Positions 4,542-61,813 of a stretch of 64,000 bases of DNA are shown piece by piece. A program made the translations under genes and the position numbers. The stretch spans positions 744,001-808,000 of the forward strand of contig QPFY01000005.1 in NCBI GenBank assembly GCA_003665825.1, written 5' to 3'. This DNA comes from Microbotryum silenes-acaulis. Lineage: Eukaryota > Basidiomycota > Microbotryomycetes > Microbotryales > Microbotryaceae. How positions within the stretch are numbered: position 1 is the stretch's first letter; each line of letters begins with the position of its first letter. The notes beneath the pieces were generated by a model. The model made no database searches and had not been told where the DNA came from. It worked only from the letters and a program-made list of their open reading frames with translations.

Positions 4542-4691
4542 CCCTACGGGAAATCCGCGCAACCGCAGTTAACCGGCGTCGACTTGGGCGCGACAATTGA
4601 GCAACCGCGGGCACGCAGGTCCGACTTTGGCTTGATCGTCAAGCCAAAGTTGACCGCGGTGTAACTGCGGTTGCGCGGATTTCCCGTAGGG
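4542..4691. mobile_element. MITE-like element, copy A (150 bp)
   Basis: A 150-bp element with perfect 30-bp terminal inverted repeats (4542-4571 and 4662-4691) beginning CCCTACGGGAAATCC. It is flanked by a 9-bp direct repeat CGCGCGATT (4533-4541 and 4692-4700), read as a target-site duplication. An inner hairpin has 12-bp arms at 4624-4635 and 4639-4650 around a TCG loop. A second copy at 61664-61813 is the same length and differs at two positions (4577 and 4649). It has no coding capacity; open frames across it are accidental. TIR plus TSD mark a non-autonomous DNA transposon; a 9-bp TSD would suit a Mutator-type helper, but copy B shows only 7 bp, so the superfamily is open. Confidence 0.88.
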
Positions 4692-4700
4692 CGCGCGATT
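4692..4700. repeat. Target-site duplication, right, MITE copy A
   Basis: Second copy of CGCGCGATT, immediately after the GTAGGG end of the element. A G precedes both copies, so the duplication could be read as 10 bp. Confidence 0.85.
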
Positions 4701-5070: not shown

Positions 5071-8000
5071 ATGAGTGAGACGAACGGTGGCGGCCGAGTC
5101 GTCGTCGGGGGTGGCCAAGCGCTCAACGGTGGAGGCAAGCAACAAGCCGTAGACGTCTACGATGACTCCGCTATACCATTAGATGTGAGTTCAGCAAGAA
5201 GATGAATCAGGGCGTGTGCATTCCATGTAGCCGATGCTGACGGGCGGTCTGTCCACCGCATTCTCACTCGCCTCCGTCGTCCACCTGTGCCAGCAGACGA
5301 GCCCGGGATCGCCGGCCTCAGCATCTTCGGCCTCTCGCGAATCGCTGGTATCCATCACGAAATCACACCTCCTACGTGTAGGCGCGCTTGGGATTCCTCT
5401 TTCGGATGACGAGGACTTTGCCGATGATGATGCCGAGCTCCACTCACGCCCCTCAACTCGTTCCGACCTCGGGTCCGTACTCGTCAATCCGGCCTCGCCT
5501 GGGCCGCCACCTCGAGTGACTCCCGATCATGGCCACGACGGTACTATGAGACTTCAAGAAGTAAACCATTTGGCGTCCGGCTCGGCGTATAGCGGCAAGG
5601 AAGCCATGAGCGCGATAGGAAAGGAGCAGGAACGATTATCCCATGCCGGAGCCAATTCGGCACTGTCCGAAGAAAGCTTCCGGGGCATTGTACGTGTACG
5701 GACTACTGATAGTGTCGACCAGTGTCCGAGCTCCACCGCTCACACTATCCTCCTTCGTGTACAGGTCGATGACTTGACCATCGAGAGTGCGTCCGAGTGA
5801 AAATTTGGGAGTTGACCTCCATTGCGACTGACTTCAATTGCGGTCTGGCTGCACAGATCGGAAACTGAAGGGTCGATTGCGACGATTCGAGGCATCGAGC
5901 GTACCTGCAAGTATGGAACAGGACCGCTTATTCGAAGTTCGGTTCTTTGACGGTTTTCCTGCGTAAGTAGTGTCACGCAGACTGCTTTCACAACGAGGAA
6001 TCCGAAAAACGTGGCTGACAGGACCTCTAATCCATTCTATCGTCTACAAAGTTCGAGACGGCAAGAAATCGAGTCATTCCTCACACACTATGTGCAGCAA
6101 ATTCAATCCGAAGATGGCGAAGGGTTCCAGGGCCCACCGCCAATGACGAGCGGCGCGAAACCTTCTCGCGCTCCTCGAGCCGATCAAGAATCCGCAACAT
6201 TGGGAACCGACACGACTTCTTCGATCGGTGTGACGCTTCGGTCCCTGCGTTCGTCCGAAAAAGAAGAGCTGAGCAAGCGATTGAACGCGGGCGGGCCCGA
6301 GGAGGGCAGTGGTAGCGGGAGTGCCAGCGGGAGCGCTGACCGTCTTTCCAAGGAGAGCGGTCCACCGCCCTTGTCGACTGAGAACGTCGAACGCGTCAAG
6401 TCGGAATCTGTCATCGCTGGTCCTCCGTCCCTCCCCGCTAAGGTCCGCGAAGGCTCGCACGAACGCGCCATGGTCGAACCGCCGCAAGGGGAACCATCCG
6501 CCGAAGCTCAGGACGTCGTCCACCCGTACGACGGCGAGCAGAGTTGGCTCGCAGCGCCTTCGTTCTCTGGTATCGAGCCTCAATCTGCGAGCGGAACCGG
6601 AACGGGGATGCGTATTTCGAACCCCCAGCGACGCGAAGCACGCAACAGACCAGTCGCGAAAATCGCTTTCCCGTCCATCTCACGGCGACAGTCGCATTCG
6701 GCGATCGCTGCCGCCAACGCTGCAGAGGAAGTCAAGGGCGAGAGCTCGGCGGAAGAGTCGGAGGAATCTCCGCCACCGCACAACGTCGGTGCTGCAGGCT
6801 CAGATGATTCCGGCTCGGACGAGATGACGACATCACTCACGACTGCCGAGCCTTTGGCCAAGATTGTGGTCGAACTCGTAGAGCGGCTGTTTGCTGGCGC
6901 TTGGTTGAGCTCGCCGGTGGATGACCCGTTGCTCAACCCGCTCCTATCCGAGCCGTCGCCGCTTCCGCCGACTTCGTCGAGCAACACACGGTATCTTCGA
7001 ACGATGCTCGACTCGGACGAGACCAAGCGAGGTGGCGGTTGGGTCTATCTGAACCTGATCCTCACCATGGCGGGAGTCCACCGACTCAACCTGAGTATCG
7101 ATTTCCTTCGCTGGTCGCTCAAGCGCCGCAGTCACCGCATTGAGGTGAGCAAGGATGGGAGCAAGGTGCGGTGGCGCGGAGAGGCACGCAAGCGCAACGA
7201 GGTCGAATCGGCCATTGCCAGGGCGGAGGGCGTTGACGCCAACGATGCGACGATGGACGATGGCGCAGTCGAAGCCGTCGAGCAACGCCGCCAGACCAAC
7301 AACCTCGCCGTGTCGACAAGCCTGCGCGCCCCGGCACCCGACTCTAATATCTACCTGCCGCGGGAAGCCGACACTGCCTCGTCCGACAGTCGCCTGCGGC
7401 GCGTTGCTGCCACCGAGGACGACATGCAGAGCGGCTCGGTGCCCACTACCCTGTCCTCGATCAAAAATTCGAATACCAACTCGAAGAACTCAAACTCGAC
7501 CGGTGCAACCTCAATTCCAACCGGTGGTTCGGGCTCGGGCCGGTCCAAGAACGACAGTAACAGTTTGCGCGACGAGTCGGGTCGATCGACGCGGTCGGGT
7601 GTCAGCCGGGCGAGCATCAGCGGCACGGCGACGAACAGTCTTACCAACAGCCAGCCCTCGGATGCGCTGCGTAAAGCCTTGCAAAAGGAGCTGTTGGATG
7701 CGAGGGGCGTGCCGGACTATACGCTGCACGACGGAACCCTCTTTGTGGCCCCTTTGGGTGGCGACGACGACTCCACGGGCACGGATACAGAGGACATTAC
7801 GCGTCGCAACCCATCTGTGGCACCTTATAGGCCGATGTTTGCCAAACGTCAGTTCGAGGATGATGAAAGCGATTACTTTGCCCCATCCGTTGACGAGCCG
7901 TCGAGCGGCCACGGCGAAGATTCGATGCTGCACTCGACAGAGGGCGGCGCACATTCCACGGAGGCAAGAGGCAGAGCACCTGCTCGCAAGCGCAGAAGGC

Positions 8001-8674
8001 GGCATGGTGCACCCGACGGTGGCCTCGTCTTTTTCCGGTCCGACGTCTTCTGTTCGGACTTTGCAGGCAACGCCCATGTCCGGGATCGGCTCGAGAGATC
8101 CCCTTCTGCCGACTCGGACGCTGTCGACCGCGCGCGCATCTCTCGTAGCGATGGCGAAGACGACGGTGGCGTCAACTCTCCGAACGCATCTATCTTCGTT
8201 TCCACGCCATCCTCACCTACGCACGAGTCCGAAGCTTCGGGGCAAGTCGTCGAATTGAGCGACACGACGTCGAAAGCGTTGGTGTGGCCGTCTTGGGAAA
8301 CTGAAACGTTCTCGCAGATGGACGTGGAGAGCGAGACGTCGGGACTGCCCTCTCTATCGCTATCGGGAATGACCAACGTCGTGCCTATGGACCACTTTAC
8401 TATCCGCATCAAGTCGGAGTTGGTCTGCGATCCATTGGTCACTCCTCGGCCGCAACTGCGTCACGCACGCGCGGTCATCACTTCCCTTGCCTCGTTCTTG
8501 CCGTCGAGGCCAACAAGTAGTGCTCCACCGAAACCTTTGCATTCGACTAGGGTATTGGAGGAACGCATTGTGACGCACTTGCCGTCGTCACAGGTGCGGT
8601 TCCCGCGGTTAAGGATGCGTCGCCAAGGTAGTGACTCGGACGACGACTCGTCGGACGAAGAGGTGTCAATCTGA
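5071..8674 (+). CDS. frq: FREQUENCY circadian clock protein (FRQ)
   Basis: Negative element of the fungal circadian feedback loop: FRQ dimerises, binds FRH and CK1, and inhibits the White Collar complex. Five exons: 5071-5184, 5231-5689, 5765-5786, 5857-5962 and 6022-8674, 1117 aa (Neurospora FRQ is about 990). Spliced exons 2-4 give the FRQ N-terminal signature: VDDLTIENRKLKGRLRR (residues 192-208, coiled-coil dimerisation helix) then DRLFEVRFFDG (221-231). A central block at 571-620 has GGGWVYLNLILTM and ends DGSKVRWRG, matching the conserved FRQ core. A basic stretch ARKRRRR near 888 is a candidate NLS, and VFFRSDVFCSDFAGN near 903 matches the conserved C-terminal FRQ block. Ser-rich, PEST-like linkers fill the rest. 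Intron 5690-5764 is 75 nt, in frame and stop-free, so a longer isoform is possible. The first ATG is supported by a good phase-0 donor GTGAGT. Confidence 0.9.
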
Positions 8675-9903
8675 TTATTATTATTTCATAAATGGATACA
8701 AGCGCTCAGAAAATCTGAGCGACTAAATAAGGATGATACTGATTGACCTGCTCGGGCTGCTCCAATTTATCTTGGCCCTTCTGGCGCCGAGCTTTGGTCG
8801 AACCGCCTGCGGATTATCTGCTGTCGCTTGGGATCCCGTTCCACGGATGGGCACCCGAAACACGTCGTGATGGCGGTAGTGAGGCCGTGGCTTCCCGCTT
8901 TGATCCGGACAACGAACCGATCTCACTCGATTGATGTCTCGTATGATTGTGCCACGCGTTTGTAACCCCGTGTATCCGGTTTTCCTTCCCTCTTTCATAT
9001 CTGTGCCGGTATCTACGTATATGCTATCAGTTGGGGGTCCTTCGAGATGTGTTTTTGTCCGTATTTGAGATGTGTTTCGCATTCTTTTCGCTCGCGCATG
9101 TACATACATTTTCTCCGGCTGACTTGGTCGGCGAAGTTTCCTTCGGATTAGTACTTGAACAAAAGTCTTTTGAATTACCTGGTTGTGTACTTGTTTGCCT
9201 GTTTTGCAAGCGAACTGAGTGAGCGGATGTTCCCAGGCAGAGAAGCTGTCTTGCGTAAAGTCAAGCGACCCGCTCGTGCTGGGCTGGCGGCTGCTGGCGC
9301 AGGCTGACGCGCTGACGGTCGGGACGTCTCTGTCGCGCCGAGTGAACGGTGCTGCCCTCGTCATCCTCCCGCTCTCAACAGTTTCATCCCATCGCCAACA
9401 CGTAGCCGACTACCCGCTCGCACCAGGTGAGCCAGACCCTGTGATCTCTACTTCAACCATGCGGATCGACCCGATGGCTCGTACGAGCGTCTGGCGCTGC
9501 ATGGCTCACCGGACACTGACTTGGCGAGACAAAGGATCAGCGGCAGCGGCGTCACCTGCTGTACAGGACTCTGAGCGCTGATCACCTGCGTTGGACCTTT
9601 ACAGCTCCAAGGCCGGAACAAGCACCCTCTCCGTAGTCTCCGTGAAGATCTCAATCCATTGGAAATACACGTAGGTCCTTTTACGTAGCTCTGGCGTTCA
9701 GAGCATGCGTTGCAGTTGCTGCAAGTGAGGCTGACGTTGGGCGCCATCACCCCTCCCCCCCCCGCACTGCCTCCCCACCGCCTCTATCGGAATTCGGCCT
9801 CGCTCTACTCACCATCCCAAACACGACAACCGTGGGCGACGACCCGTACGATTTGTAGTCATAGACCCTCCGCATCGCACCGCCTAAGGAAGCTTAGCAC
9901 ATC
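8675..9903. other. Intergenic, no gene seen
   Basis: The 1.2 kb between the frq stop and the Hob3 start. Open frames on both strands are short, overlapping and without family resemblance. A run of ten C residues lies near 9757. Presumably frq 3' UTR and terminator followed by the Hob3 promoter. Confidence 0.4.
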
Positions 9904-23889: not shown

Positions 23890-26800
23890 ATGGACACCCC
23901 GCCCACGGCCTCATCGTCCCATGGTCGTGCGATAGACGGTGACCATGAGTCTCCTCAACCCTCTACATCCACCACAACCCCCACGGGCTCCACGTTGGAC
24001 CTAGCTCCTCTCCGACTGTACCTCAACCAACTCGTACCCCTCATTCTGGGCGCACGGCCCTCGGAACTTGAACCCATGTACAAGGACCCTTCGTTCGAAG
24101 CGATCGTCACCAAGTGGGCGAATGAACCGAGTCAGGGGAGTGTGTACGTCGTCAAGTCGAGGATCGAACCTGACGACGATGAGGATCAGCTCGAGCAGTC
24201 ACCAGGTACGCGCCGGAGTCAGCCTGAACCACACCATTGTGTGCACGCTTCAACACGTAGAAAGGAACAAACATCTCTTCCACAAGTACTGAATTGAGGT
24301 TCCACTCCCCAGCAGACGCCTCGGATGCACCGACCTATTCGTTCCTGCTCGCTCCCGTGCTCTCCTATTCTAGCACCCAAGCTGCGACCTTGGCCCTGAT
24401 CAAGCACTCATCGACGCTCGACCCGAGTCTCCCCCTCTCGACCCAACTCCATTGCCTCAACCTTTTCGGTCCCGCAGCTTCGACCTCCTCCTCATCCAGT
24501 ACCTCGGCTCTGAACCCATCCTCAGAATCTTCAGCGACCAACGTCGGATCAACCGTCTACGAGGGTTTGCATCGCCTTGTCCACTACGGTGTCGCACCAG
24601 CTTTCGAGGCGTTCGTCGAGAGTAAAGCGATCAAGGAGAAGCAGTTGGAGTTGGCGAGTGGTAGGAGTCGAAGGCGGCAGGACGACAACAAGGAGAACGA
24701 CTCCAAGTTGGGCATCCCCATGACCAAGAAGAAGTTTGCCGAACTCGAATTGAGCTTGTTGCACCGTACGTCATCCGAGTTCGTCATAAAGGTTACGGGG
24801 GAGCAAGCAAAACTGAGCTCTCCATTGGAACACAAACAGTGCAACAAAATGTCGAGATACCCGACATCGTCTTGTCGATTCACCCGACCATCTCCGCCGC
24901 CATTGCTTCGGCGCAGGCAGCCGGGGTCCGACCCTCGGTCGACCTGATCGACGCCTCGATCCTCGAAGACTCGACTTTCCTCAACAAACTACAGTCCGAA
25001 GTCAACTCGTGGATCAAGGAGATTCAAAACGTTACCAAACTCTCACGCGACGTCGCTTCGGGTACGGCTTCGCAAGAGATTAATTTCTGGCTGGCGATGG
25101 AGAAGGCGTTGGAGAGCATCGAGGAACAACTCAGAAGCGACCCGATCGTGTTGACGTTGGATATCCTCAAGACTGCAAAGAGGTTCCATGCGACCGTTTC
25201 TTTCATGTCTGATACGGGGTTGAGGGGCGCGACAGAGATTGGTGGGTTTGCTCGGAAAGCTGGCTCACCCTACGGGAAGCTGATTCAACGCAGAGGAGTG
25301 CTCCCACAGTCACCAAGTACAACCAGTTGATGAAGGATTTTCCGTTGAACGAGTTGCTTGCTGCAACGGACCTCGCCAAGGTCCAGGACTCGTTACATCT
25401 GATTTTTGGTCATGTCAACAAGAAACTCAAGCTTTCGTGAGTGCCCGAGTGGTGACCCACTTAGACAGCGTTTCCTGACTGAGCCGATTTTGTCGTCCCC
25501 CGTCGCAGACCTTACCCGATTCGACGCGCCTTACCTCTCGTCGAAGCCATCTCCCAGGACCTTAATGACCAACTACTCAAAGTCCTCGGCTCGCAACGTC
25601 TGGCCTACCTCGACTACGCCGCTTTTGAACGTTCCATGTCGGCATGTTCGGCCGTCTTCCACGCGTGGGACGAAGGGCTTAAAGAGTTCACGACCGTTGC
25701 GCGTGACGTGACGAGGAAGAGGAACGAGAAATTCATTCCTATCAAGATCAATGCTCGACATGCGGCTTTGCAGGAGAGGGTTGGATATTTCAGACAGTTC
25801 AGGAAGCAGCATCATCAGTTGCAGGTCATGGTTGGACCGCTTGGGACTGAGGTCGGTGATGCCAAGAGGATGACGACCGGTGCGACGGCTGAGGGAGGTC
25901 AGGAAAGATACGCGAGCGTCTTGAACGATGTCGATATGGATGCCGAGGTCAAGCTTGCGTACGAGAACGTCAAGAACGTCGATGTGTTGGATGTCTCTTC
26001 TGGTGAGGTGCTACTGCGCGACCGTGGCTACAGCCGCTTTGTAGGCTGACGATTTGATTTTTCTAACAGAGGGAACCGAAATCTGGGTCACGGCCGAAAC
26101 GAGCTACAACGAACGCGTTGCGCGAGTCGAGAACCAAATCATCGCTCGACTGAGGGACCGTTTGGCGAGTGCGAGAAACGCGAACGAGATGTTCCGCGTG
26201 TTCAGCAAGTTCAACGCCCTCTTCGTACGACCCAAGATTCGAGGTGCGATCGCCGAGTACCAGTCCGAGTTGATCGATTCGGTCAAGGAGGATATTCGCG
26301 CCTTGCACGACAAGTTCAAGCGCTCGTACGCGCAGTCCGAGGCTTACCATATGTCGCAACTTCGTGACCACCCACCTGTGTCGGGCGCGATTGTTTGGGC
26401 CAAGCAGATCGAACGTCAGTTGTTGGCGTACATGAAGCGCGTCGAGGACGTATTGGGTAAAGGGTGGGAGTTGTATGCCGAAGGGACCAAGTTGCAAGCC
26501 GAGTCGCAGAGTTTCCGTCGCAAGCTCGACACTCGACCCATTTACGATGCTTGGTTGCACGACATTCAACGCCGCAACTTGCAAATCACGGGAAGGTTGT
26601 TCGACATCACCAAGAGTCGAGCGCAGGGTGGGCAATTGCAACTCGTCGTCAATTTCGATGCGCAGATCATCACACTCTTCAAGGAGGTTCGCAATCTCGT
26701 TTGGTTGGGCTTTTCGGTCCCTCATACAATCTCCAATATCGCCAAAGATGCTAAACGCGTATACCCGCACGCCGTGTCGTTGATGGAAACCGTCCGAACC

Positions 26801-29800
26801 TATTCGCAAACAATCGCCAAGCTCCAAGCCAATCCTGGCATCGCTGCGCTCGTCGCCGAGTTTCGAACGAACGCTCAGCAGCAGATCACCAAGGGAATGA
26901 ATGTGCGATGGGAACACGTCGTCAACTCGTTCGATTCGAGACATGCTCTATCGACGTACCTCCCTGGCTCGAGCTCGACGACGGGGACTTCGAACGACGT
27001 TGCGATCGGGGGCGGAAAACATGGCGTCTACGTGCGTGAATTCGCCAGTGTCGTCTCCGCGTTCCAAGACCGCACGGACGCGCTCATCGACATGTACGCC
27101 GAGTTGACGCGCACGATCGACAACCTCGCGACGTGCGCTTATGACCCGACTGCGTTTGCGGCTTTGCTCGAATCGGTGCAAAAGACGATTGATCAGCTCA
27201 ATCTGGAAGGGTACGCCAATTTGGACGCTTGGGTCGCCGAGTTGGATACCAAGATTGAGGCGATCTTGTTGACGCGTTTGAGGGCGGTCATCGATCGATG
27301 GTGCGTCGAGTTCCGACGAGACGCCGAGCAGGGACAGAGTGGTGGAGGGGAGGGGTCCGCCCCGAGGAAACGTGTCGCGACGAATGCGGGAGGCGTGGTC
27401 AAGGATGGTGTTGCCACCGCGACGACGGCTGGAGCGCCTGCTGTTGAAGGAGATGGTCTGCAGCTCGAATCCGTTGTCCATGAGATCCGCATCCAGAATC
27501 AAGTCATCTACCTCGACCCTCCGATCGAACGAGCTCGCCAGAGCTGGTACTCGCAACTTCATCGATGGCTCGGCGTCGTATGCGGTCTCAGGCGCATCCA
27601 ATCTTCGCGGTACGAGATCGGTCTCAAGTTGCGCTCCTCGGCCGCTCAACAACCCGCCAATTACATGGGCTTGTTGAGTCAATTAACGGATGGTACGCTC
27701 GAGAAACCCTTTGCGCTCGTCGAGGAGAAGTTGCGCGAGATCTTACAGTACGTCAACAAGTGGCTGCAGTTCCAATCGCTCTGGGACCTCGAGTCGGACT
27801 TTGTCTCTGCACGCCTGGGCGACTCGCTTGCTTCGTGGCAACAGTTGTTGCTTGAGATTCGCAAGACGCGTGGGACGTTTGACAATTCGGAGACACAGCG
27901 CTCGTTTGGTGTTGCCGTCATTGACTACGAACAGGTTCAGAGCAAGGTCAACGCCAAGTACGATACGTGGCAGCGCGACATTCTTGGTCGTTTCGGATCC
28001 AAGTTGGGTTCCACGATCAAGGAGACCCATGCGGCGATCCAGAAAGCTCGACATGACTTGGAGCACCATTCGATCGAGGGGTCTTCAACGGCTGCGACGG
28101 TGTCGTTCATCACGTACGTTCAGGACGTCAAGCGCAAGGTCAAGCAATGGGCGCCCATGGTCGAAATCTTCACGCAGGGGCAAAAGACGCTTGAACGCCA
28201 GCGCTACCAGTTCCCCAACGATTGGCTTCACGTCGATCAGATCGAAGGGGAATGGTCTTCGTTCAATGACATTTTGGCGCGCAAGAACGCGTCCATCCAG
28301 GACCAGTTGGCGGGTTTGCAGCTCAAGATCGTTGCGCAAGATCAGATCTTGCACAACCGCGTCAACGAGGTTGTCGTCGATTGGGAAGCAAACAAGCCGA
28401 TCCAAGGGTCGCTCAAGGCTGATGCGGCGATGACGGCGATCAACATTTTTGAACAACGCGTCGAACGCCTCAAGGATGAATTGGACGAAGTTGCACGCGC
28501 TAAGGAGGCGTTGGATCTTGATCTCGTAAAGGACGATCGACTCGAACCGGTTCGGGAAGAGATTCGAGACCTCAAGGCCGTATGGACGGCGTTGTCGGGC
28601 GTATGGGCCCAAATCGCCGAAGTGAGGGAGACATTATGGACCTCTGTGCAAGCTCGCAAATTAAGGCAGTTGCTTGATGGTCTCCTTGCGACGACGAGGG
28701 ACATGCCCTCCCGCATGCGCCAATACGCCGCTTTCGAATACGTGCAAGAGGCATTAAGGGCGTTGCTCAAGTCGAATGCTCTGATCGGGGACCTCAAGTC
28801 CGAGGCGCTGAGGGAGAGGCATTGGAGGCAGTTGTTCAAGTCCTTGAGGGTCGGGGCGACGTATTCCCCTAGTTCGATGACGTTGGGTACGGTGTGGGAT
28901 TTGGATCTGAAGAGGAACGAAAGCATCATCAAGGAGGTGATCGTGCAAGCCCAGGGGGAGATGGCCTTGGAGGAGTTCTTGAAACAGGTCAGTTGGCGAT
29001 CGATCATCCAAGGATTTGAGCTCGAGGACCTGAACTCATCCAAGGGGTTTCCCTCTCTTTTGATAGGTCAAGGAGACGTGGACCAACTACACGCTCGACC
29101 TCGTCAACTACCAGAACAAGACGCGCCTCATCCGCGGCTGGGATGACCTCTTCTCCAAGTGCGGCGAGAATCTCAACTCGCTCACGGCGATGAAACTCTC
29201 GCCTTACTACAAGGTCTTCGAAGAAGACGCGTCGTCGTGGGAGGATCGCTTGAACCGCATCCACGTGCTCTTCGACGTCTGGATCGACGTGCAACGCCAA
29301 TGGGTCTATCTTGAGGGCATCTTTTCCGGTAGTGCCGACATCAAGCACCTGCTGCCGATCGAGTCGCAGCGCTTCAACAACATCAACGCCGAGTTCCTGA
29401 CCGTGATGAAGAAGGTGTTCAAGTCGCCGTTCGTGCTAGACGTGCTCAATATCCAAGGCGTGCAGAAATCGCTCGAACGCTTGGCCGACCTCTTGTCCAA
29501 GATCCAAAAGGCGCTCGGTGAATACCTCGAACGCGAGCGTTCGTCCTTCCCCCGCTTTTACTTTGTCGGTGACGAGGATTTGCTGGAGATCATCGGCAAC
29601 AGCAAGGAGATTGTGCGCATCGGCAAATTTCTCAAAAAGATGTTTGCGGGGCTTTCGTCGATCAAGCTCGACGACGATATCACACGCATCGAAGGGATGG
29701 CCTCGAGGGAGGGTGAAGAGGTCATGTTCTCGACCCCGATCATCTTTGCCGAACACCCCAAGATCAACGACTGGCTCACGCGCCTCGAGTCCGAGATGAA

Positions 29801-32800
29801 GGTCTCGCTCGCCAAGCTTCTCGCGCGCGCTTATGCCGACCTCGAGGCGTTCTACGTCGCCGATTCGGGACTCGATACGGCCAAGTTCCTCGCTTGGATC
29901 AATGAGTACCCTGCTCAGCTCGTTGTTGTTGCGGTACAAATTGCTTGGACGCGCCTCGTCGAGTCTGCGATCGAAGGCCGCAAGTCGCTTACGGATGGCC
30001 CCCTCGCCACCACCTTGCGCGGTCTCGACGTCCTCGCCGACACGGTCTTGACCGAGCTGGCACCCATCCAACGACGCAAGTGCGAGCACCTCATCACCGA
30101 GCTCGTGCACGAACGTGACGTGCTTCGTCTGCTCGCGGCCAAGGGCGTTTCCTCGACCAAGGACTTCGAGTGGCTCTACCACATGCGCTTCTACCTCGAC
30201 GTCTCGCGCGAGAACCCGCTCGAGCAGTTGAGCGTCCACATGGCCTCGGCGACGTTCACTTACGGGTTCGAATACCTCGGCGTCCCCGATCGATTGGTCC
30301 AAACGCCGCTCACCGATCGTTGCTACCTGACCTTGACGCAAGCGCTCGACTCTCGACTTGGTGGATCGCCGTTCGGTCCTGCCGGTACGGGTAAGACCGA
30401 AAGTGTCAAAGCTCTTGGTGTCGCGCTCGGTCGATTCGTGCTCGTTTTCTGCTGTGACGAGACATTCGACTTCCAGGCCATGGGTCGCATCTTTGTCGGC
30501 CTGTGTCAGGTTGGAGCGTGGGGCTGCTTCGACGAGTTCAATCGACTGGAAGAACGCATCCTTTCTGCTGTGTCGCAGCAGATTCAGAGCATTCAACTCG
30601 GTCTCAGTGCGGGTTTGACCGACCCCAATGCCGAAGTCGAGCTCGTGGGCCGACACGTCAAACTCAGTCAGGACACGGGTATCTTCATTACAAGTAAGTG
30701 AAGCGACGCACTTCAAAGCTTTGCATCTCAAACGAAAACTCATGATTTTGTCGGCCGTCTTGACAGTGAATCCTGGCTACGCTGGTCGATCGAATCTCCC
30801 GGACAACTTGAAGAAGTTGTTCCGCAGCATTGCCATGACCCGACCCGACCGCGAGCTCATCGCGCAGGTCATGCTTTTCTCGCAAGGTTTCCGCACTGCT
30901 GAGACGCTCGCTTCCAAAGTCGTTCCCTTCTTCAATCTGTGCGCGGAACAGTTGTCGTCGCAACCGCATTACGACTTCGGTCTCCGGGCGCTCAAGGCCG
31001 TCCTCGTCAGCGCTGGTCACCTCAAGCGCGAACGATTGCAAGCCGCTGCAGCCGCCGCTGCAGGTGACGAGGACACGACAACCACGATCTCGAGCGTCGA
31101 CATCCAGGAACAAGAAATCTTGATCCAGAGTGTGACCGAGACGATCGTACCCAAGCTTATCGCGGACGACGTTCCACTCTTGACGAGTTTGCTCGCCGAC
31201 GTCTTCCCTGGCATCGATTACGTGCCCGTCAATCTCGACAAGCTCAAGGAACACGTCCTCGCGGTCAGCGCCGAGCGTCATCTTGTCGCCGACGAAGCAT
31301 GGCTCCAGAAAGTCATTCAGCTCTACCAGATCCAAAACATCCAGCATGGTCTGATGATGGTCGGTCCTTCGGCGACGGGAAAAACCTCGGCTTGGCGCGT
31401 GTTGCAAGCTGCGCTCGAGCGCTTGACCGGCGTCGAGGGTGTTTCATATGTTATTGACCCCAAGGCGATCTCCAAGGAAGCGCTGTACGGAACGCTCGAC
31501 TCGACGACCCGCGAATGGAACGACGGTCTGTTCACGCACATCTTGCGCAAGATTGTCGATGATGTTCGAGCCGAGAGCACCAAGCGCCATTGGATCGTGT
31601 TTGATGGTGATGTCGATCCCGAATGGGTCGAGAATCTGAACAGGTGAGCGCATGGATGTGCGCTGGAATTGCGAGTTTTGCTTTGCTGCCTCTTCTGATC
31701 TCTCGGCATCCTCAGTGTTCTCGACGACAACAAGTTATTGACGTTGCCAAATGGAGAGCGCCTCAATCTGCCCCCGAACGTTCGCATCATGTTTGAGGTC
31801 GAGTCCCTCAAGTACGCCACTTTGGCGACCGTGTCACGTTGCGGTATGGTCTGGTTCAGCGAGGATGCGGTGACCCCTTCGATGCTCTACCGCAACTACC
31901 TAAACTCGATTCGCGCCGTTGCGATCGACTCGGTCGAGGACGATGCCGCTATGTCTCGCCCCTCTGCGCGCGGCATCGGAGAAGATTCGTCAGAAGTCTC
32001 GTCCAACCTCGCGACCCAATGCCTCGTCGCCGATAAGCTTGAACCGCTGTTCCTCGATGCCGACGGTCTGGTACCGAAGGCGCTCGCCTTCGCCTCGCGC
32101 ATGGACCACATCATGGACTTCACAAGTATCCGTGCCATCACGACGCTCTTCTCGCTGCTCAATAAGACGATTCGCAATGTCGTCGAATACAATGCGCAGC
32201 ACTCAGACTTCCCGCTTAGCCCTGAGCAGGTCGAGTTGTACGTCATGAAGCGATTCCTGCTCGCGATCGTATGGTCGTTCACCGGTGACTCGAAGCTCGA
32301 CACGCGGGCGAGCCTCGGCGATTTTCTGCGAGAGAACTCGAGTCTTGACTTCCCTCCGCTCGGACCGGGGTCGTCGCTCATCGACTTCGACGTCCACGTT
32401 GGGTCCGGCGATTGGACGTCTTGGCAGAGCGCCGTGCCGACGATCGAGATCGAAACGCATGCTGTCTTGTCGGCCGATGTCGTCATTCCTACGATCGATA
32501 CGGCTCGTCACGAGGAGGTCCTATACTCATGGCTATCGGAGCACCGCCCCTTGATGCTCTGCGGTCCGCCCGGTTCGGGTAAGACGATGACGCTGTTCTC
32601 GGCGCTGCGCAAGCTTCCCGACCTCGAGGTCATCGGACTCAACTTCTCGAGCGCGACGACTCCCGATCTCATTCTCAAGACGTTCGAGCAACGCTGCGAG
32701 TATCGCAAAACGCCGAACGGGAACATCCTCGCCCCGGCCCAGATCGGTCGGTGGATCGTCTTGTTCTGCGACGAGATCAATTTGCCGACGACGGACAAGT

Positions 32801-35800
32801 ACGGCACACAAAAGGTCATCTCTTTTATGCGTCAACTCGTCGAGCAAGGTGGCTACTACCGCACCTCGGACAAGGCCTGGGTCAAGCTCGAGCGTATCCA
32901 GTTCGTTGGTGCCTGCAACCCTCCCACCGATCCCGGTCGAGTGCCGCTCAGTCATCGATTCTTGCGACACGCGCCTTTGGTCATGGTCGACTACCCGGGC
33001 GAAGCGTCGCTCAAGCAGATCTACGGCACGTTCGCGCGCGCCTTGCTCAAGGTTGTGCCGACGTTGCGAGCCTATGCCGAGCCCTTGACGGCCGCCATGG
33101 TCGACTTCTACCTCGCCTCCCAGCGTCGCTTCACCTCGGACACTCAAGCGCACTATGTCTACTCCCCTCGTGAATTGACGCGCTGGACCCGCGGTATCTA
33201 CGAGGCACTTCGCCCTCTCGACAGCCTGGCCGTCGAAGGTCTAGTGCGCGTCTGGGCTCACGAAGCTCTGCGCCTCTTCCAAGATCGTCTCGTCACGGAG
33301 GAGGAGCGTCGATGGACCGACGAAACGATCGATGCCCTGGCGCTCAAGCACTTCCCGACCATCAATCGCGAGGAAGCGCTCGCTCGCCCCATCTTGTACT
33401 CCAACTGGCTGTCGAAGCACTACGTCCCCGTTGACCGCGAGCAGTTGCGGGAATACACCAAGGCTCGACTGCGGGTTTTCTACGAAGAAGAGCTTGATGT
33501 GCCGCTCGTCCTCTTCAATGACGTGCTCGATCATGTCCTTCGCATCGATCGAGTCTTCCGTCAGGTCCAAGGGCATTTGCTCTTGATCGGGGTCAGCGGT
33601 AGTGGAAAGGTAAATTGCGACTGTCCAGGTCAACGCGCTTTGCGAGCTCAGAACTGACACTCAGTACGTACTTCTCAGACGACCTTGTCGCGCTTCGTGG
33701 CCTGGATGAACGGGCTGAGCGTGTTCCAGATCAAGGTGCACAACAAGTACTCCGCCGAAGACTTCGACGATGATCTCCGAAGCGTCCTGCGCCGCTCCGG
33801 TTGCAAGGGCGAGAAGATCGCCTTCATCATGGACGAATCGAATGTGCTCGACTCGGGCTTCCTCGAACGCATGAACACGCTGCTCGCCAACGCCGAGGTC
33901 CCTGGTCTGTTCGAAGGGGACGAGCACGCCGCGTTGATGACGGCGTGCAAGGAAGGCGCGCAACGTGATGGTCTCATGCTTGACTCGCCCGAAGAGCTGT
34001 ACCGCTGGTTCACGACCCAAGTCGCCCGCAATTTGCACGTCGTCTTCACGATGAACCCTCCCGCTGACGGGCTCGCGTCTCGTGCGGCGACCTCGCCCGC
34101 GTTGTTCAACCGATGTGTGCTCGACTGGTTCGGAGACTGGAGCGACCAAGCCTTCTTCCAGGTTGGCATGGAGTTCACTAACACGCTCGACCTCGACACG
34201 CCATCGTACGCGCCGCCCGCAGCTTTCCCCGTCGCGTATCGCCAGCTTTCCCTCCCGCCCGTGCACCGCTCGGCGATTATCAATGCGCTCGTCTACGTTC
34301 ACGCGTCGATGTACGAGACGAACAGGCGACTGTCACGCCGCCAAGGCCGGACGAACCACGTCACGCCGCGCCACTACCTCGACTTCATCAACCAGTACGT
34401 GCGCATCTTCAACGAGAAGCGCGACGAGCTCGAGGAGCAACAACGCCATCTCAACGTTGGACTCGACAAGCTGCACACGACGGTCGTGCAAGTCGAGGAG
34501 TTGCGCAAGAGCCTGGCGATCAAGCGAGGCCAACTCGAGGCCAAGAACGCTGAAGCCAACGACAAGCTCAAGCGCATGGTTGCCGATCAGCAGGACGCCG
34601 AGCAAAAGAAGGTTGCTTCGATCGAGATGCAGGCCGCGCTCGAGACGCAGAAGAAGGAGATTGCCGAGCGCAAATCGCTCGTCATGGGCGAACTTTCCGA
34701 TGCCGAACCGGCCGTCGAGGAGGCGCAGTCCGCTGTCAGCAACATCAAGAAGCAACAGCTAACCGAGGTGCGATCGATGGCAAATCCTCCCGAGGCAGTC
34801 AAGCTCGCGATGGAGTCGGTCTGCACGATCCTCGGGTTCCAGATCGACAGTTGGAAGACGGTGCAGAGCATCATCCGTCGTGACGACTTCATTGCGAGCA
34901 TCGTCAACTTTGACACGGCCAGCTCGATGACCCGTCAGCTGCGCGAGAAGATGCGCCGCGAGTACCTCAGCCGCCCGAACTTCAACTTCGAAACGGTAAA
35001 TCGCGCTTCCAAAGCCTGCGGTCCGTTGTGCAAATGGGTCATCGCGCAAGTCAACTACTCGGACATTCTCGACAAGGTCGGACCCCTCCGTGAAGAGGTC
35101 ATGGCGCTTGAGAACCGCGCCGAGACGACGAAGCACCAGGCATCTGCCATCATCACCATGATCGCCGAGCTGGAGGCTCGTATCGCATCGTACAAGGACG
35201 AGTACGCCCTTCTGATCAGCGAAACCCAAATGATCAAGACCGAGATGGAGCGCGTGCAGCAACGTGTCGATCGGTCCATCACGCTGCTCGACAGTCTTGG
35301 TTCGGAAAAGACCCGATGGGAGGCTGGAAGCAAGACCTTCGAGGTACAGATGAGCACCGTCGCTGGTGATGTGCTCCTGTCGGCCGCTTTCTTGGCGTAC
35401 GCCGGTTACTTCGATCAGCACTACCGCGAGTCGATGTGGTCTGGATGGACGGCCCATCTTGCCGAGGCCGGGATCAAGTTCAAGCCCGAGCTGTCGCTCT
35501 CCGAATACCTGTCGACAGCTGACGATCGCCTGTCCTGGCGTGCCAAGTCGCTGCCCGATGACGACCTCTGTACCGAGAACGCAATCATGCTCAAGCGCTT
35601 CGATCGATACCCGCTCATTATCGATCCCTCGGGCCAGGCCACGACCTTCTTGCTCAGCGAGTACAAGGACCGCAAGATCTCGGTCACGTCCTTCCTCGAC
35701 GAAGCTTTCCTCAAGAACCTCGAGTCCGCGCTACGATTCGGAACACCCCTACTGATTCAGGACGTCGAGCACCTCGACCCGATCCTCAATGCGGTGCTCA

Positions 35801-38800
35801 ACAAGGAGCTACGTCGTGCCGGTGGCCGTGTGCTCATTCGGCTCGGGAACCAAGACATTGATTTCTCGCCTGCCTTCACGTGAGTGACAATCCGCATGAG
35901 CGTCTGCTTCCTTGTTCATCTGACCAAACTGCGGTTCCTTGAATGCAGACTCTTCTTGTCGACGCGCGACCCTTCGACCGAGTTCCCCGCCGATCTTAAC
36001 TCCCGAGTGACGATGGTCAATTTCTCCGTAAGTGATCGTAGACAGGACGAAAGATTGCAGACTTCGATGACTAATATACCTCGCCCACCTGTCTCGCCAG
36101 ATCACTCGTGCGAGTCTTCAAGCCCAGTCGCTTAACCAGGTGCTGCGGGTTGAGCGGCCCGAGACGGATCGCAAGCGCTCCGACTTGCTGCGCCTGCAGG
36201 GCGAGTTCCGCGCCAGGCTGCACCACCTCGAAAAATCGCTCTTGTCCGCTCTCAACGAATCGCAAGGCAACATCCTCGATGACGACAAGTAAGTCATCTC
36301 ATTACCGGATACACTTGAGCAAAGGAAGCCCGCTGACTCTAGGAATGATCATACAGGGTCATCGAGACACTCGAAACACTCAAGCGCGAGGCGGCCGATG
36401 TCACGCGCAAGGTCGAAGAGACGGATGCGATCATGGCCGAGGTCGAGCAAGTCACGAGCGAGTACCTGCCCTTGGCGCAAGCGAGCAGCTCGATCTTCTT
36501 CATTCTCGATGAGCTCTACCTGCTCCACCACTTCTACCAATTCTCTCTGCGCTTCTACCTCGACATCTTCGACTATGTGCTCTTGCGCAATCCGTCGCTC
36601 AAGGGCGTGACCGATCCTCAGCAGCGACTCTCGATTCTCATCGGAGACTTGTTCCTGCACGTCTTCAAACGCACTTCGCGTGCTCTGCTTCACTCCGATC
36701 ACGTCGCCCTCGCCGTCCTGCTCGCGCAAGTCAAGCTGCGCAACTCGAACATCGCTTTTGACGAATACGAGTTCAGTTTCCTCCTCGAAGGTGGCGATGG
36801 CGCGCCGCCCGAGTCGGCACCGGAGGCGCGTTCGTCGCTCCTCGACTCGACTCAACAGCGTCGACTCCGATCGTTCGCCCGTCTGGCCTCTTTCAAGGAC
36901 CTGCGCGAGCATATCGAAGCCAACGAGGATGAATGGAAAGCCTTCTTTGTTTCAAGTACTCCGGAAATCGTTGTGCCGGAGATCTGGTCGGATGTGTCTC
37001 GTGAGTCCCGACAGGACATTAATGGTGCAAATGGGAGTGGCTTAGCTGACTCCCCATATCCCCCTCGATCAGCACTGGTTCTTGCCTTACGCCGAATTCT
37101 TATCGTCAAGTGCCTGCGGCCCGAACGGCTGCTGCCTGCGTTCGGGGCCTTCGTCAACCTCGTTTTCGAGCGCGACATGTTCGTCGAAGCGACTTACTCC
37201 CTCGAGAGCATGGTCTCGAACGAGGTCGATGCGGCGTCGCCCGTGTGCTTGTGCTCCGTTCCGGGCTACGATGCCAGTTACCGCGTCGACAACCTCGTCG
37301 CTACGACCAAAGTCAAGTGCGTTTCAGTTGCCATGGGATCGCAAGAAGGTTTCGCACTGGCCGACCAAGCCATCGCCGCCGCGGCTCGCACGGGCCACTG
37401 GGTCCTGCTCAAGAACGTGCATCTCGCCCCTTCGTGGCTCAGTCAACTCGAGAAGCGACTCCAGAGCTTGAATCCGAACAAGGCCTTCCGACTCTTCCTC
37501 ACCATGGAGACGAATCCGGCGATCCCGGTCAACATCCTGCGACAAGGACGAGTTCTGATGAACGAGCCCCCGCCCGGTATTCGAGCCAACATTCTCGAGT
37601 CGCTCAAGAGCATCTCGCCGGCCCGCCTATCGACTGGCCCTGCTGAGAAGACACGTCTGTACTTCTTGCTCGCTTGGTTCCACGCCGTCGTTCAAGAGCG
37701 TCTGCGCTATGCCCCGCTGGGTTGGAGTAAGGTCTACGAGTTCAACGACTCCGATCAAGAGGCGGCACTGGGAATGATCGACTCATGGCTTTCGGCCACC
37801 GCCAAGGGTCGCGCCAACGTTGACCCCGCTCTCATCCCGTGGGACGCAATCCGCAGCCTAATGCGCGAGTCCGTCTACGGTGGTAAGATCGACACCGAGT
37901 TCGACCAGATCCTGCTTGACAGCTTCGTTTCGTTCCTCTTCTCGCCGAGGGCTTACGACGTCAACTTCGAACTCGTGCCGAGCGGGCCTGGCGAAGCCGG
38001 CCTCGTCATGCCTGATGCGACTCGATTGGAGCAGTTTGTATCGTGGGCGAGCAGCTTGCCCGAGCAGGAGCCCCCCTCGTACCTCTCGCTGCCGCCTTCG
38101 GCCGAAAAGGTCATCGCGGTCGCTCAAGGGAAAGCCCTTCTTGCTCGACTGCTAAAGATGCGTTCGCTCGACGACGACGACGAAACGGTCGCTGTAGACG
38201 TCAAGAAAACCGCCGGCTCCGTGTCGCAGCCGGCATGGATGCGAGCCCTTCGAGACTCGTGCGCCGAATGGCTCGAGCTTTTGCCTAAGGTGAGCTATCT
38301 CGTCGCATTCAACTACTTCATTCGCTCTTACTGACATTTGAAGCGTTTACAGACTTCGGTGGCCCTCGCAGACCGCAATGTCGACTCGGTTCACGATCCA
38401 TTGGCTCGCTTCTTCGACCGCGAATGCGCCTTGGGCAAGAGTCTGCTCGCGAAGATCCGCCAAGACTTGACCATGATCATCCGCGTGTGCGATGGCGAGC
38501 AGAAGCAAACGAACGACATCCGATCGTTGCTGCAAGACTTGACGAAGGGAAGCGTGCCATCGCCCTGGCGCCGATACCGCTGTCGCGATCTGGCTGCCGG
38601 AGCTTGGATCGCAGACTTCGTTCAACGCCTCGCTCAACTCGCACGGATCGTGGAATCCGGCGGTAAACTCGGCTCGGCTCCGACTTCCCTTGGATTGTTG
38701 TTCCATCCGCATGGCTTCGTTACGGCCTCTCGCCAAGCAATCGCGCATGCAACGCACACCTCACTCGAGCAATTGAGTCTCCAACTCGACCTCGAGGAGA

Positions 38801-48350: not shown

Positions 48351-51300
48351 ATGACCAGTCTGAGCTACCATACCCATGGTCTCAGTAGTGGTGGATCAGG
48401 TCCAGGCTCGTCAATGAGCGGCAGTGGTGGCTCCCCTTCCAACAGCGGCTCCTCCCCCGCGAGACCGACCTCTCCTTCGCTCGGCTCATCCAGCGCTTCA
48501 ACCGCTACCGCTACCGCTACCGCTACCGCTACCGTCACCCACCCCGCACCACCCGACACCGTCCTCACCGCCCTGAACTTCACGCCCTTCAAGACCAAAA
48601 ATACCCGACGTGATCTGACAACCTCGTACCGCGCCTTTAAGCAAGCCTGGTCCGCGATCGAACGAACGACGGTCCTCCAACACTCTGCTCGAAGGTTAGG
48701 CGAACGAGCGGCCAATGTGCTGTTGGTGACGACCGACAAGTTGCAGGCTTATGAACCCAAGGATGAGAAGGACAAGATCTTGGGCAAAGTGCCCACTTAT
48801 GAGTTCCAGGCCGAGGCGAACCCGCAAGAGACCATGTTCAAGCTGCAGTCGTGAGTTCGCAGGTGGGATGCGGCGTGGCCTCGTTCACCTCCTTTCCTGC
48901 GAGTCGCGCGGGTGGGAACGGGTCGAGGCGGAGGCAGCATATCTCGCGCGGGATGTCCCTCACTCGCTCAGGTACTGACAGCGCTGTCTTATCTCCCTCT
49001 ATCAGCATCATGATCGACCTCCAAACAGCCATGACCCTCCTCGCCTCCCCTCGTCAAGACCAACAGGTGCTTCTCGTGCGCGACCTCTCCTCGACCGTCC
49101 GTTCGCTCGAAAAACTCAACACCCAACTCACCAGCGCTGTCGAGATGTACGAGCTCTTCATCTCGACCGAACCGTGGGCCCTCGAGAACGAACATGATCT
49201 GGCCGCCGACTATGCGACCTTGCCTCGTCTTTTTCAACTCGCTTTTGCATTGAGGGGTCCTCTTTATACTGGTTTCCTCAAAGATCATCCCGCACCACCT
49301 GGGGAGATCGCTTCCATCTCCAAACGAAGGGACAATTATCTCGCTTGGTGTCTCGAGACGAATCCGCTGCTGAGACAAGATCCCTCGACACCCACGTCGG
49401 CGAGGAAGAGATGGGTACCGGTCACTCCTAGCCCCGAAGCGTCACCCGTGTCGCCGCTTTTCCCCAAGGGGGTTGCGGGAACAGTACCCGTTCTAGCACG
49501 ATCACGAGTACCATCGTCGCCAACTGCAGCTGCTCCCGCCGGTGGCTCGAGACGATTGAGAAGCTCAACCATGGTCAACGAAGTCAGCGGCTCGCCGCCC
49601 TCGATCAAAGCCGGAACCGTAGTAGAGACCAAAGATATCCCATCGAGTCCCACCACCAGTCCAGAAACGTCTCCAACAATCCCAGGCACTTCCCCCTGGA
49701 CGGCTTCTCTCCTAAACTCTCCCAAAGAACTCAGCGCCGATACCCCGGACTCGACCCCTCCCACGACACCCCAAATTGTGACCTCGATCTACCCCAACAC
49801 AGTCGCCGATCGTGCCTCTCGCCTTTCCACCGACCCCGACGAACACTCTTTCCTCTCCATCGGAGACCATCCCAGCGTAAGCTCTGACTCCTCGGGTGCA
49901 TCGGACGATGAACCCGATTCACCGACGTCGGGTACCCCTCGTCAACTTCCTCGTCTGCTCGAGAACGGGTCAGCCAAAACAAGTCCGGCTTCCGAAGTAC
50001 CCCCTGCCAAAGGTCTCGGGATCCTCGATTCGCTCAATGCAGCGGTCCCTATCGAACCCGATGCGACTCCAAATTCCCCCGTGGAGGAGAAGAAATCGAA
50101 CTTGCTTAGCTCACCCAGATCACCCCGACGCGTCCCTTCGATCCCTACCCTTCCCGCGATCCCAGAGGACGAACTCTACCGACCCGAACCGCCGACCCCG
50201 ATCCCCTCTTTCATCGTTCGACCGGCGACACCTCAGCGCGAATCCCTCCAAGCGGGGGAAATGGGATCAACACCTCAAACCACAAGTTTGCGTATCCTCT
50301 CACTCGACGGAGGAGGAATCCGTGGCTTGACGCTCCTATACACCCTGCGCTCCAAACTCCCTAAAGACTCTCCACCACCATATCAAGTTTTTGATCTCAT
50401 CACGGGATGTGGAACCGGAGGATTGGTCGCGATCTTGTTGGGTCGATTGAGGATGACGCTTGATGAGGCGATCAACACCTATTTGTCGATCGCGAGGCAG
50501 GCATTCATCTCCAAGGAGCTCGTGCGCAAGAAAGGTCGCTGGAGTCGACTGTTCGGAGGTCCAGGTTCAACAGCTGACCGAACCGAAGTCGGCAAACTCC
50601 TTCCCGGAACCCGCGACCACGGGCTCGAAGAAGCCCTTCTCGAACACCTCGACGACGTCCCCATGCTCGAAGAATCCTCTGCTCTCGAAGCGAAGCGATG
50701 CAAAGTCGCCATCCTGGCGTACGAACAAAGTTCCTACGGAGGCGACGGTGCCCCCGTCTGGTTCCGTTCTTACCTCGACGATAATGACGAGAACCTCGAT
50801 TCACCTTGCATCCGAACCGTCGTTCGAGCGACCATGGCTTCGAGCGCTTTCTTCAGACCTTTCAAAATCACCGAAGAGCGAGCATCTTTCATCGTCGCTC
50901 CTGAATCACTCAATCCCGCCGACCTAACGCTAGACGAAGCGCACCGCATCTCCGAGACCCTCGGACCGGAAGCAACCGAACTTCCCAAACTAGAGATCAT
51001 CCACTTCCTCTCCCTCGGCGTAGGTCAAATCCCTTCCGGCATCCGTCTTTCCTCCAAAACCAAGATGCGCTCTCTCAAACTCGTTACTCGGATAGTAGAA
51101 GAGAACCAAAGTGCTTATGAACGGGTTTTGAGAAGGGCGAGGAGGGAGGGGTGGTCGGAAAGGATCGAGAGGATTGATGTGGATTTGGTGGGGAGGGATG
51201 ATAAAGGGATTGATGAGTGGTTTTATCATATTCTTTTGAGGGACGCTATTGAACGGTTCGTGAATGGTGGGGACCTGAGTACCACTACTTCGGGGGCTGC

Positions 51301-51679
51301 GGATAGAGTGGGGAGTGGGGATTTCGAATTTCCTTCGCCGACCCGGACGGAAACGGTAAAGTCGACAAATCCAAGACGTGAGTATCCCGGTCTCTCTCTC
51401 TCCGGTCCTCCAAATCACTCACCTTCTTCTCCAATCCCAGCCACTTCAATGCTAAGCACCTTCACGTTCCGCCGCTCCTCAATCCAGCGCTTATCCCTCC
51501 GGCCCGAAAGCTCCTCAAGCTCCTCAGCAACCTCCCCCCTGCGTCGATCAGTTTCGCTGACGAACCTCCGTACAAGTCTTAATCCCATGTATCTACAGCG
51601 TGACACGTCAACGGCTTCCCTCGACGCGGATGTCGCGAGGGATTCTCTCACGAGTTCAGGGACGAATACTGGTTTGTGA
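48351..51679 (+). CDS. Patatin-like protein lacking the catalytic serine
   Basis: Exons 48351-48850 and 49006-51679; a further 63-nt in-frame intron at 51378-51440 (GTGAGT...CCCAG) is likely, giving 1036 aa (1057 if retained). After a Ser/Gly-rich start with Thr-Ala repeats comes an ordered domain (NFTPFKTKNTRRDL to TNPLLRQD, about 80-340), unknown to me. A Ser/Pro/Thr-rich linker of about 250 residues follows, then a patatin-like domain. The oxyanion loop DGGGIRGL (about 601) is intact, but the elbow reads GCGTGG (634-639) where active enzymes have GTSTGG. Gly636 (GGA) thus replaces the nucleophile Ser, and no DGG/DGA catalytic Asp motif is evident. Family patatins hydrolyse phospholipids or acylglycerols; this one is probably a non-catalytic relative or a sensor. 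Confidence 0.8.
48500..48534. repeat. ACCGCT hexanucleotide microsatellite
   Basis: About six tandem copies of ACCGCT in the coding region of the patatin-like gene, encoding Thr-Ala repeats. Confidence 0.8.
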
Positions 51680-57259: not shown

Positions 57260-57828
57260 TCCCCTTTGAACGAGCTCAGTCCACAAAAGGTCCGAGCGCT
57301 TCAGCGTTTCACGCCGACAAATCCAATATGATGCTCTGGACCACGAATGCACGGACTGACCGAAATCACGCTGCAGTTTCTACATACCTGTACCATGTTG
57401 TCATACACTCCACTCTTTGCGGTCCCGCGGCCGCCGGCTCTGCGGAGCGCTGCGGAGACTCGCAGTATGCCGTCGTCGACCCAAGTCACGACGAAATCCG
57501 CTCCAGACCGCTGCGAGTCATTTACGTCTTAAGGCCCAGTACAGGCTGTCCTCCTAGTCATAGGAAGAGACGAGCGTTTTTATCTGGCCATCTGAACCAA
57601 ACCTACCATGACTTGAGGTGATGAGAGAGCAGTAGCAATCGCGGGGCCTCGTTTCGGGCAAGTCGAGTCACTTTGGGCGCGAACGCCCAACTCCGAGTTG
57701 CTGGAGCGCGCTGCGCAAGTGACTCCGGTGCTGCGGATCCGGGTGACTCGAAATGATCCGTGTTCGCTCAAAAAGACGAGGCTTTCTTCGTTCCCTCTCT
57801 CCATCCTGATCCTCACATCTCTTCATCC
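57260..57828. other. Intergenic, no gene seen
   Basis: Between the 120-aa gene and the PB1 gene on the same strand; presumably the PB1 gene promoter. A GC-rich GCGGCCGCCGGC patch lies near 57430. Confidence 0.4.
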
Positions 57829-61656: not shown

Positions 61657-61663
61657 TACAGCT
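61657..61663. repeat. Target-site duplication, left, MITE copy B
   Basis: TACAGCT abuts the left terminal repeat of copy B and recurs directly after the right terminal repeat at 61814-61820. Confidence 0.75.
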
Positions 61664-61813
61664 CCCTACGGGAAATCCGCGCAACCGCAGTTAACCGGGG
61701 TCGACTTGGGCGCGACAATTGAGCAACCGCGGGCACGCAGGTCCGACTTTGGCTTGATCGTCAAGCCAAATTTGACCGCGGTGTAACTGCGGTTGCGCGG
61801 ATTTCCCGTAGGG
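61664..61813. mobile_element. MITE-like element, copy B (150 bp)
   Basis: Same 150-bp element as at 4542-4691, same orientation, 148 of 150 positions identical by hand alignment. The perfect 30-bp terminal inverted repeats are at 61664-61693 and 61784-61813. Flanks carry a 7-bp direct repeat TACAGCT (61657-61663 and 61814-61820), shorter than the 9 bp at copy A. One of the two differences sits in the inner hairpin and breaks a base pair. It ends 227 bp upstream of the aldo-keto reductase start codon. Confidence 0.88.

What the first reader, a model, noticed from the sequence alone, without database searches (positions are those of the whole stretch)
5071..8674. A FREQUENCY clock gene in an apparent basidiomycete genome
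Hand splicing gives a 1117-aa protein with the FRQ coiled-coil signature (DDLTIENRKLK), LFEVR, the central WVYLNL...DGSKVRWRG block and the C-terminal FCSDFAGN block. FRQ is known chiefly from filamentous ascomycetes; basidiomycete examples are few to my knowledge. It implies a canonical WCC-FRQ oscillator in this lineage or an unusual retention or transfer.
Basis: partly seen in the sequence, partly recalled or inferred. Interest (0 to 1): 0.85.

Follow-up and report, generated by a model that had tools for sequence, protein, structure and literature searches.

The report
Anther-smut fungus FREQUENCY clock gene
This is a genuine copy of the fungal clock gene frequency in a Microbotryum anther-smut fungus (a basidiomycete); the same genome carries a second, anciently diverged copy and several partner genes of the known mould clock, so such a clock can be tested in this group.

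The parts
5071..5184 (+). exon 1
   Evidence: GT donor at 5185
5297..5689 (+). exon 2 (intron end moved from 5230 to 5296 to match three Microbotryum proteins)
5765..5786 (+). exon 3 (22 nt, in the coiled coil); the 75-base intron before it is open and may be retained
5857..5962 (+). exon 4
6052..8674 (+). exon 5 (intron end moved from 6021 to 6051); runs to the stop that ends at 8674 if the last intron is not spliced
8779..8934 (+). probable last exon, 51 residues plus stop, with the C-terminal motif DY..SL..P...W; acceptor unresolved in this strain
   Evidence: 94-98% identity to P0001-P0003
5669..5900 (+). coiled-coil segment, residues 163-191, interrupted by two introns; L180 and L184 fit N. 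crassa L165/L169
   Evidence: N. crassa numbering from a PMC4592989 passage
6845..6904 (+). helix 477-496, counterpart of FRQ-CK1 interaction domain 1 (FCD1)
   Evidence: FCD1 position from PMC10963029; carried over by alignment
6974..7186 (+). La-type winged-helix core, residues 520-590; holds the FCD2 counterpart 547-554 (7055-7078)
8048..8071 (+). FCSDFAGN block (around N. crassa C658)
8390..8398 (+). DHF tripeptide 992-994, counterpart of N. crassa 774-776 in the FRH-binding region
   Evidence: PMC12796302 passage

Best explanation
The gene encodes FRQ-A, the orthologue of Neurospora FREQUENCY in a Microbotryum species, inherited vertically within Microbotryomycetes. It is a mostly disordered scaffold that probably dimerises through its coiled coil, holds casein kinase 1 on its ordered central core (FCD1 plus FCD2), binds the Mtr4/FRH helicase through the region with DHF, and represses the White Collar complex that drives its transcription: a delayed negative feedback loop. 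Shown here: family membership, conservation of each binding segment, WC-1, WC-2 and Mtr4/FRH genes in the same genome, and a second paralogue. Inferred: binding, phosphorylation, repression and rhythm. I think FRQ-A is the FRH-dependent clock repressor, and FRQ-B, which changed the middle residue of DHF in every row placed with it, has a diverged, possibly FRH-weak role.
For: PF09421 E 6.8e-21. Conserved blocks in the same order in 26 Microbotryomycete-type and 10 ascomycete-type rows, a few of them partial: E489 and F492 of the FCD1 helix in 35 of 36 rows, Y526 in 35 of 35 rows with a letter there, W542 and H555 in 36 of 36, coiled-coil leucines in 32 of 32 rows with letters. DHF in 13 of 13 FRQ-A rows and 9 of 10 ascomycete-type rows, 0 of 12 FRQ-B rows. 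Trees: the 26 against the 10 rows 100/100, FRQ-A 100/100, FRQ-B without P0031 90/92; FRQ-A 95/98 and FRQ-B 94/94 without six long or partial rows. Both FRQs share two intron positions. In the same genome: WC-1a (GRNCRFLQ, further PAS, GATA in frame after a GTGAGT...TTGCAG intron) and WC-1b (GKNCRFLQ, further PAS, GATA), 44.6% identical over a 576-column alignment; WC-2 with PAS and a GATA-type finger; an Mtr4/FRH type helicase.
Against: No expression, light-response or rhythm data. Outside the blocks FRQ is too diverged to align well (20-34% identity of P0001 to the rows outside Microbotryum in A1). CK1 and FWD-1 were not searched. The Mtr4/FRH candidate scores higher against yeast DOB1 (660 bits) than against FRH (598), as a general helicase would. 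No separate VVD was recognised. GATC-type motifs are not enriched upstream of frq-A. The last exon's acceptor is missing in this strain. FRQ with partners present does not guarantee a clock (V. dahliae, discussed in PMC9508176).
Confidence: 0.8

Rival explanations
1. FRQ is present but does not run a circadian clock: it and the White Collar proteins serve light adaptation or development, as claimed for Verticillium.
For: PMC9508176 discusses a Verticillium frq largely unresponsive to light (section read); PMC7493669 is titled to that effect (listing only). No rhythm data exist here.
Against: The segments that I could map as needed for the loop are kept in FRQ-A, as are WC-1, WC-2 and Mtr4/FRH genes.
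Confidence: 0.35
2. FRQ entered the ancestor of Microbotryomycetes by an ancient transfer from an ascomycete rather than by descent.
For: All named basidiomycete hits are from one class. My tree has no Mucoromycota and few ascomycete classes.
Against: The 26 rows stand apart from all 10 ascomycete-type rows, including the divergent unnamed P0012, with 100/100. Print reports FRQ in Zoopagomycota and Mucoromycotina (PMC7013081 passage citing Brody 2019), which fits descent with many losses.
Confidence: 0.12
3. Ascomycete contamination of the assembly.
For: None found.
Against: Orthologues sit in three other Microbotryum proteomes on contigs of 0.2-1.6 Mb; the second FRQ is on another contig.
Confidence: 0.01
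4. This strain's frq-A is slightly truncated: the last intron's acceptor is lost, the protein ends at EEVSI (1085 aa) and lacks the C-terminal motif.
For: No AG directly before TTC at 8779.
Against: The exon is still open and 94-98% identical; an AG at 8790-8791 exists, though it needs another donor.
Confidence: 0.3

Closest known systems
FREQUENCY of Neurospora crassa and other filamentous ascomycetes (PF09421)
   Same: Coiled coil, FCD1 and FCD2 counterparts, FCSD/FCTD block, DHF in the FRH-binding region, in the same order; N. crassa FRQ itself was not in hand
   Different: 20-24% overall identity to ascomycete-type rows; from the FCD1 phenylalanine to the tyrosine that opens the core 34-60 residues in 13 FRQ-A rows and 18-30 in 15 FRQ-B rows against 116-143 in 18 ascomycete-type rows; extra C-terminal motif
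MVLG_03865 and MVLG_02952 of Microbotryum lychnidis-dioicae (database entries)
   Same: 95.9% (last exon appended) and 93.8% identical to frq-A and frq-B of this genome; already labelled PF09421
   Different: Small differences; the last-exon acceptor differs or is lost in the window
Frq1/Frq2 of Beauveria bassiana
   Same: Two FRQ proteins with one FRH (PMC7140403 abstract)
   Different: Beauveria Frq2 is a 583-aa two-domain form without coiled coil or LAM (passage); here FRQ-B is full length (1266 aa) with coiled coil and core, and old
La motif (LaM) of La and LARP proteins
   Different: Pfam PF05383 does not match any of 47 FRQs at E up to 10; LARP chains were not among the 11 profile hits; RNA-binding residues as I recall them are mostly not kept

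Membership tests
FREQUENCY (FRQ, PF09421) | Match to the curated Pfam profile above its cut-off | tested here: met
   74.6 bits against 26.6; frq-B main exon 46.8 bits
FREQUENCY (FRQ, PF09421) | N-terminal coiled coil with the two leucines needed for FRQ-FRQ contact | tested here: met
   L180, L184; L in 32 of 32 rows with letters; modelled helix 163-191; role from PMC4592989 passage; contact itself not tested
FREQUENCY (FRQ, PF09421) | CK1-interaction segments FCD1 and FCD2 | tested here: met
   Conserved counterparts; position by alignment to ascomycete FRQs and PMC10963029 Tables 2-3; N. crassa FRQ itself was not in hand; binding not tested
FREQUENCY (FRQ, PF09421) | FRH-binding region with DHF | tested here: met
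   DHF 992-994, 13 of 13 FRQ-A rows; frq-B and its group: 0 of 12
FREQUENCY (FRQ, PF09421) | Progressive hyperphosphorylation and turnover | not testable with these tools
   needs a protein time course
FREQUENCY (FRQ, PF09421) | WCC-driven, rhythmic, light-induced transcription | not testable with these tools
   needs expression data; GATC motif counts upstream of frq-A are not unusual
WCC-FRQ oscillator | WC-1 (LOV cysteine, PAS, GATA), WC-2 (PAS, finger), FRH/Mtr4 in the same genome | tested here: met
WCC-FRQ oscillator | CK1 and FWD-1 | not tested
   no search was made
La motif (LaM) | Winged-helix La fold | tested here: met
La motif (LaM) | Match to PF05383 | tested here: not met
   0 of 47 FRQs and 0 of 15 FRQ-B segments; FRQ loci not among 4 matches in this genome. 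Print reports a match to cd07323 for ascomycete FRQs (PMC7140403 passage)
La motif (LaM) | RNA-contacting residues | not tested
   human La contact residues are recalled only; no RNA-binding test

The most novel reading that the evidence does not exclude
FRQ is a repurposed La-type RNA-binding protein: its ordered core is a La winged helix whose first helix became FCD1 and whose second half holds FCD2, so the CK1 platform of the fungal clock is one small domain, nearly contiguous in Microbotryomycetes (18-60 residues apart) and pulled apart by a roughly 100-residue insertion in ascomycetes. Microbotryomycetes kept two ancient FRQs, one with and one without the FRH-region DHF, beside two photoreceptor WC-1s, giving two partly separate feedback loops.
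Probability: 0.3. Interest if true: 0.75.

Novelty: new member of a known kind. Interest (0 to 1): 0.5.

Why it matters
It gives the fungal clock field a basidiomycete class, with culturable yeasts among its members (recalled), in which FRQ, WC-1, WC-2 and FRH can be tested together, and a natural FRQ pair that may separate FRH binding from the rest. The short FCD1-FCD2 spacing offers a compact construct for a structure of the FRQ-CK1 core, which the papers that I saw describe from models and spin labels.

Tried and rejected
GATC-type motifs (GATC, GATCGA, CGAT, GATCG) in 1000 bases upstream of frq-A: 18-40% of window stretches have as many or more; frq-B has 12 GATCG (3% of stretches) and 12 GATC (8%), too weak for a claim among four motifs tried.

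FRQ-B as one clade: with all rows the best tree leaves P0031 outside; holding them together is not rejected (AU p 0.418); without six long or partial rows it has 94/94, with a warning that two long branches meet inside it.

Contamination and recent transfer rejected. The second DSHCT helicase locus on C10 was not identified by a search.

Full report
What was checked. Pfam gives one family with E up to 1, FRQ, E 6.8e-21. The four quoted motifs are present.

Whose genome. The best protein matches are Microbotryum lychnidis-dioicae, M. saponariae and M. intermedium, then Phenoliferia, Rhodotorula, Sporobolomyces and Meredithblackwellia (13 hits, of which one is unnamed and one is a Fusarium). Phenoliferia, Meredithblackwellia and Sporobolomyces are Microbotryomycetes; for Microbotryum and Rhodotorula I rely on recall. 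The window lies in an assembly of 29.85 Mb in 88 contigs, on contig C5.

Gene model. Relatives show that two acceptors were chosen too early and that a last exon is missing. With the corrections the protein is 1085 aa to the stop at 8674, or 1134 aa with the last exon appended, and the longer form is 95.9, 93.6 and 86.0% identical to the three Microbotryum FRQs. The last acceptor could not be placed: the window has no AG directly before 8779. Intron 2 is open and a multiple of three; one of the three relatives' models reads through it.

A second FRQ. The FRQ profile finds one more place in the genome, C11:588511-588663. Its gene splices to 1266 aa in four exons and matches M. lychnidis-dioicae MVLG_02952 and an M. 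saponariae protein at 93.8 and 94.6%. It shares two intron positions with frq-A: within the AAT codon of the coiled coil and just after the LFE(V/I)R block. Phenoliferia sp. Uapishka_3 also has both types, each a partial entry.

Tree. I aligned 36 rows: 34 of 150 proteins in hand plus the two from this genome; P0007, P0014, P0021, P0027, P0030 and most ascomycete rows were left out. Twenty-six Microbotryomycete-type rows (five of them unnamed) separate from ten ascomycete-type rows (one unnamed) with 100/100; FRQ-A has 100/100, FRQ-B without P0031 90/92. Without six long or partial rows FRQ-A has 95/98 and FRQ-B 94/94. The nine named ascomycetes are, as I recall, all Sordariomycetes, so deep placement stays open.

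Partners. PAS, LOV, GATA and helicase families were searched in the same genome. WC-1a on C3 has GRNCRFLQ, further PAS matches and, after a GTGAGT...TTGCAG intron, an in-frame GATA finger. WC-1b on C12 has GKNCRFLQ rebuilt across an intron, PAS and GATA, and is 44.6% identical to WC-1a over a 576-column alignment. A preprint notes that WC-1 of several other basidiomycetes lacks the GATA finger (PMC12262267 passage); here both keep it. WC-2 on C1 has PAS and a finger completed by a GTATGT...GAGCAG intron. An Mtr4/FRH-type helicase is on C18; a second helicase of the wider family on C10 was not followed. A single-LOV protein on C10 has no VVD among the 60 best of 142 solved-structure matches, whereas VVD leads for WC-1a. 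CK1 and FWD-1 were not searched.

Function-bearing segments. In N. crassa CK1 binds 319-326 and 488-495 and FRH 695-778 (PMC10963029 tables in passages); the 6B2 mutant changes DHF 774-776 in the region needed for FRH binding (PMC12796302 passage). I did not have the N. crassa sequence; positions were carried over through ascomycete FRQs whose cysteines fit the published numbering, which is an inference. The counterparts are conserved. DHF stands in 13 of 13 FRQ-A rows, 9 of 10 ascomycete-type rows (P0012 has DNF) and the unplaced P0031; the 12 FRQ-B rows read DFF (4), DAF (3), DLF (3) and DCF (2). I read this as FRQ-A being the FRH-bound form and FRQ-B having changed that contact.

Print. Presence of FRQ in Basidiomycota is stated in PMC7013081 (citing Brody 2019, not seen itself), PMC10381341 and PMC9508176. 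A search joining Rhodotorula, FRQ and circadian found no paper, and of the 10 listed papers for Microbotryum and circadian none has a title about a clock in these fungi. I found no report of the paralogue pair in these searches; the library lacks most subscription journals.

Verdict.

Noticed in passing
window 4542-4692 and 61663-61813: A palindromic element of about 150 bases (ends CCCTACGGGAAATCC / GGATTTCCCGTAGGG) lies some 380 bases upstream of the frq-A ATG, between direct repeats CGCGCGATT; ten copies of 150 bases or more at 90-100% identity in this genome, itself included (a lower bound), so it looks like a recently mobile MITE in the frq-A promoter region.
   Followed up: partly
L033 (C3) and L034 (C12) of this genome: Two WC-1 paralogues, both with the LOV cysteine motif and a GATA finger.
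   Followed up: partly
L037 (C10:1118000-1126500): Single-LOV protein (GRNCRFLQ) next to a long open frame without Pfam match; not a clear VVD.
   Followed up: partly
window 26045-38334: Long open frames that read like a cytoplasmic dynein heavy chain (several P-loops); identity recalled, not searched.
   Followed up: no
window 48803-51679: 958-aa open frame with a patatin-like GGGIRG region; recalled, not searched.
   Followed up: no
window 57757-59208: Open frame with a PB1-like start and a very histidine/glycine-rich tail; recalled, not searched.
   Followed up: no
P0031, P0012: Unnamed FRQs on long branches that may mark further fungal lineages with FRQ.
   Followed up: no
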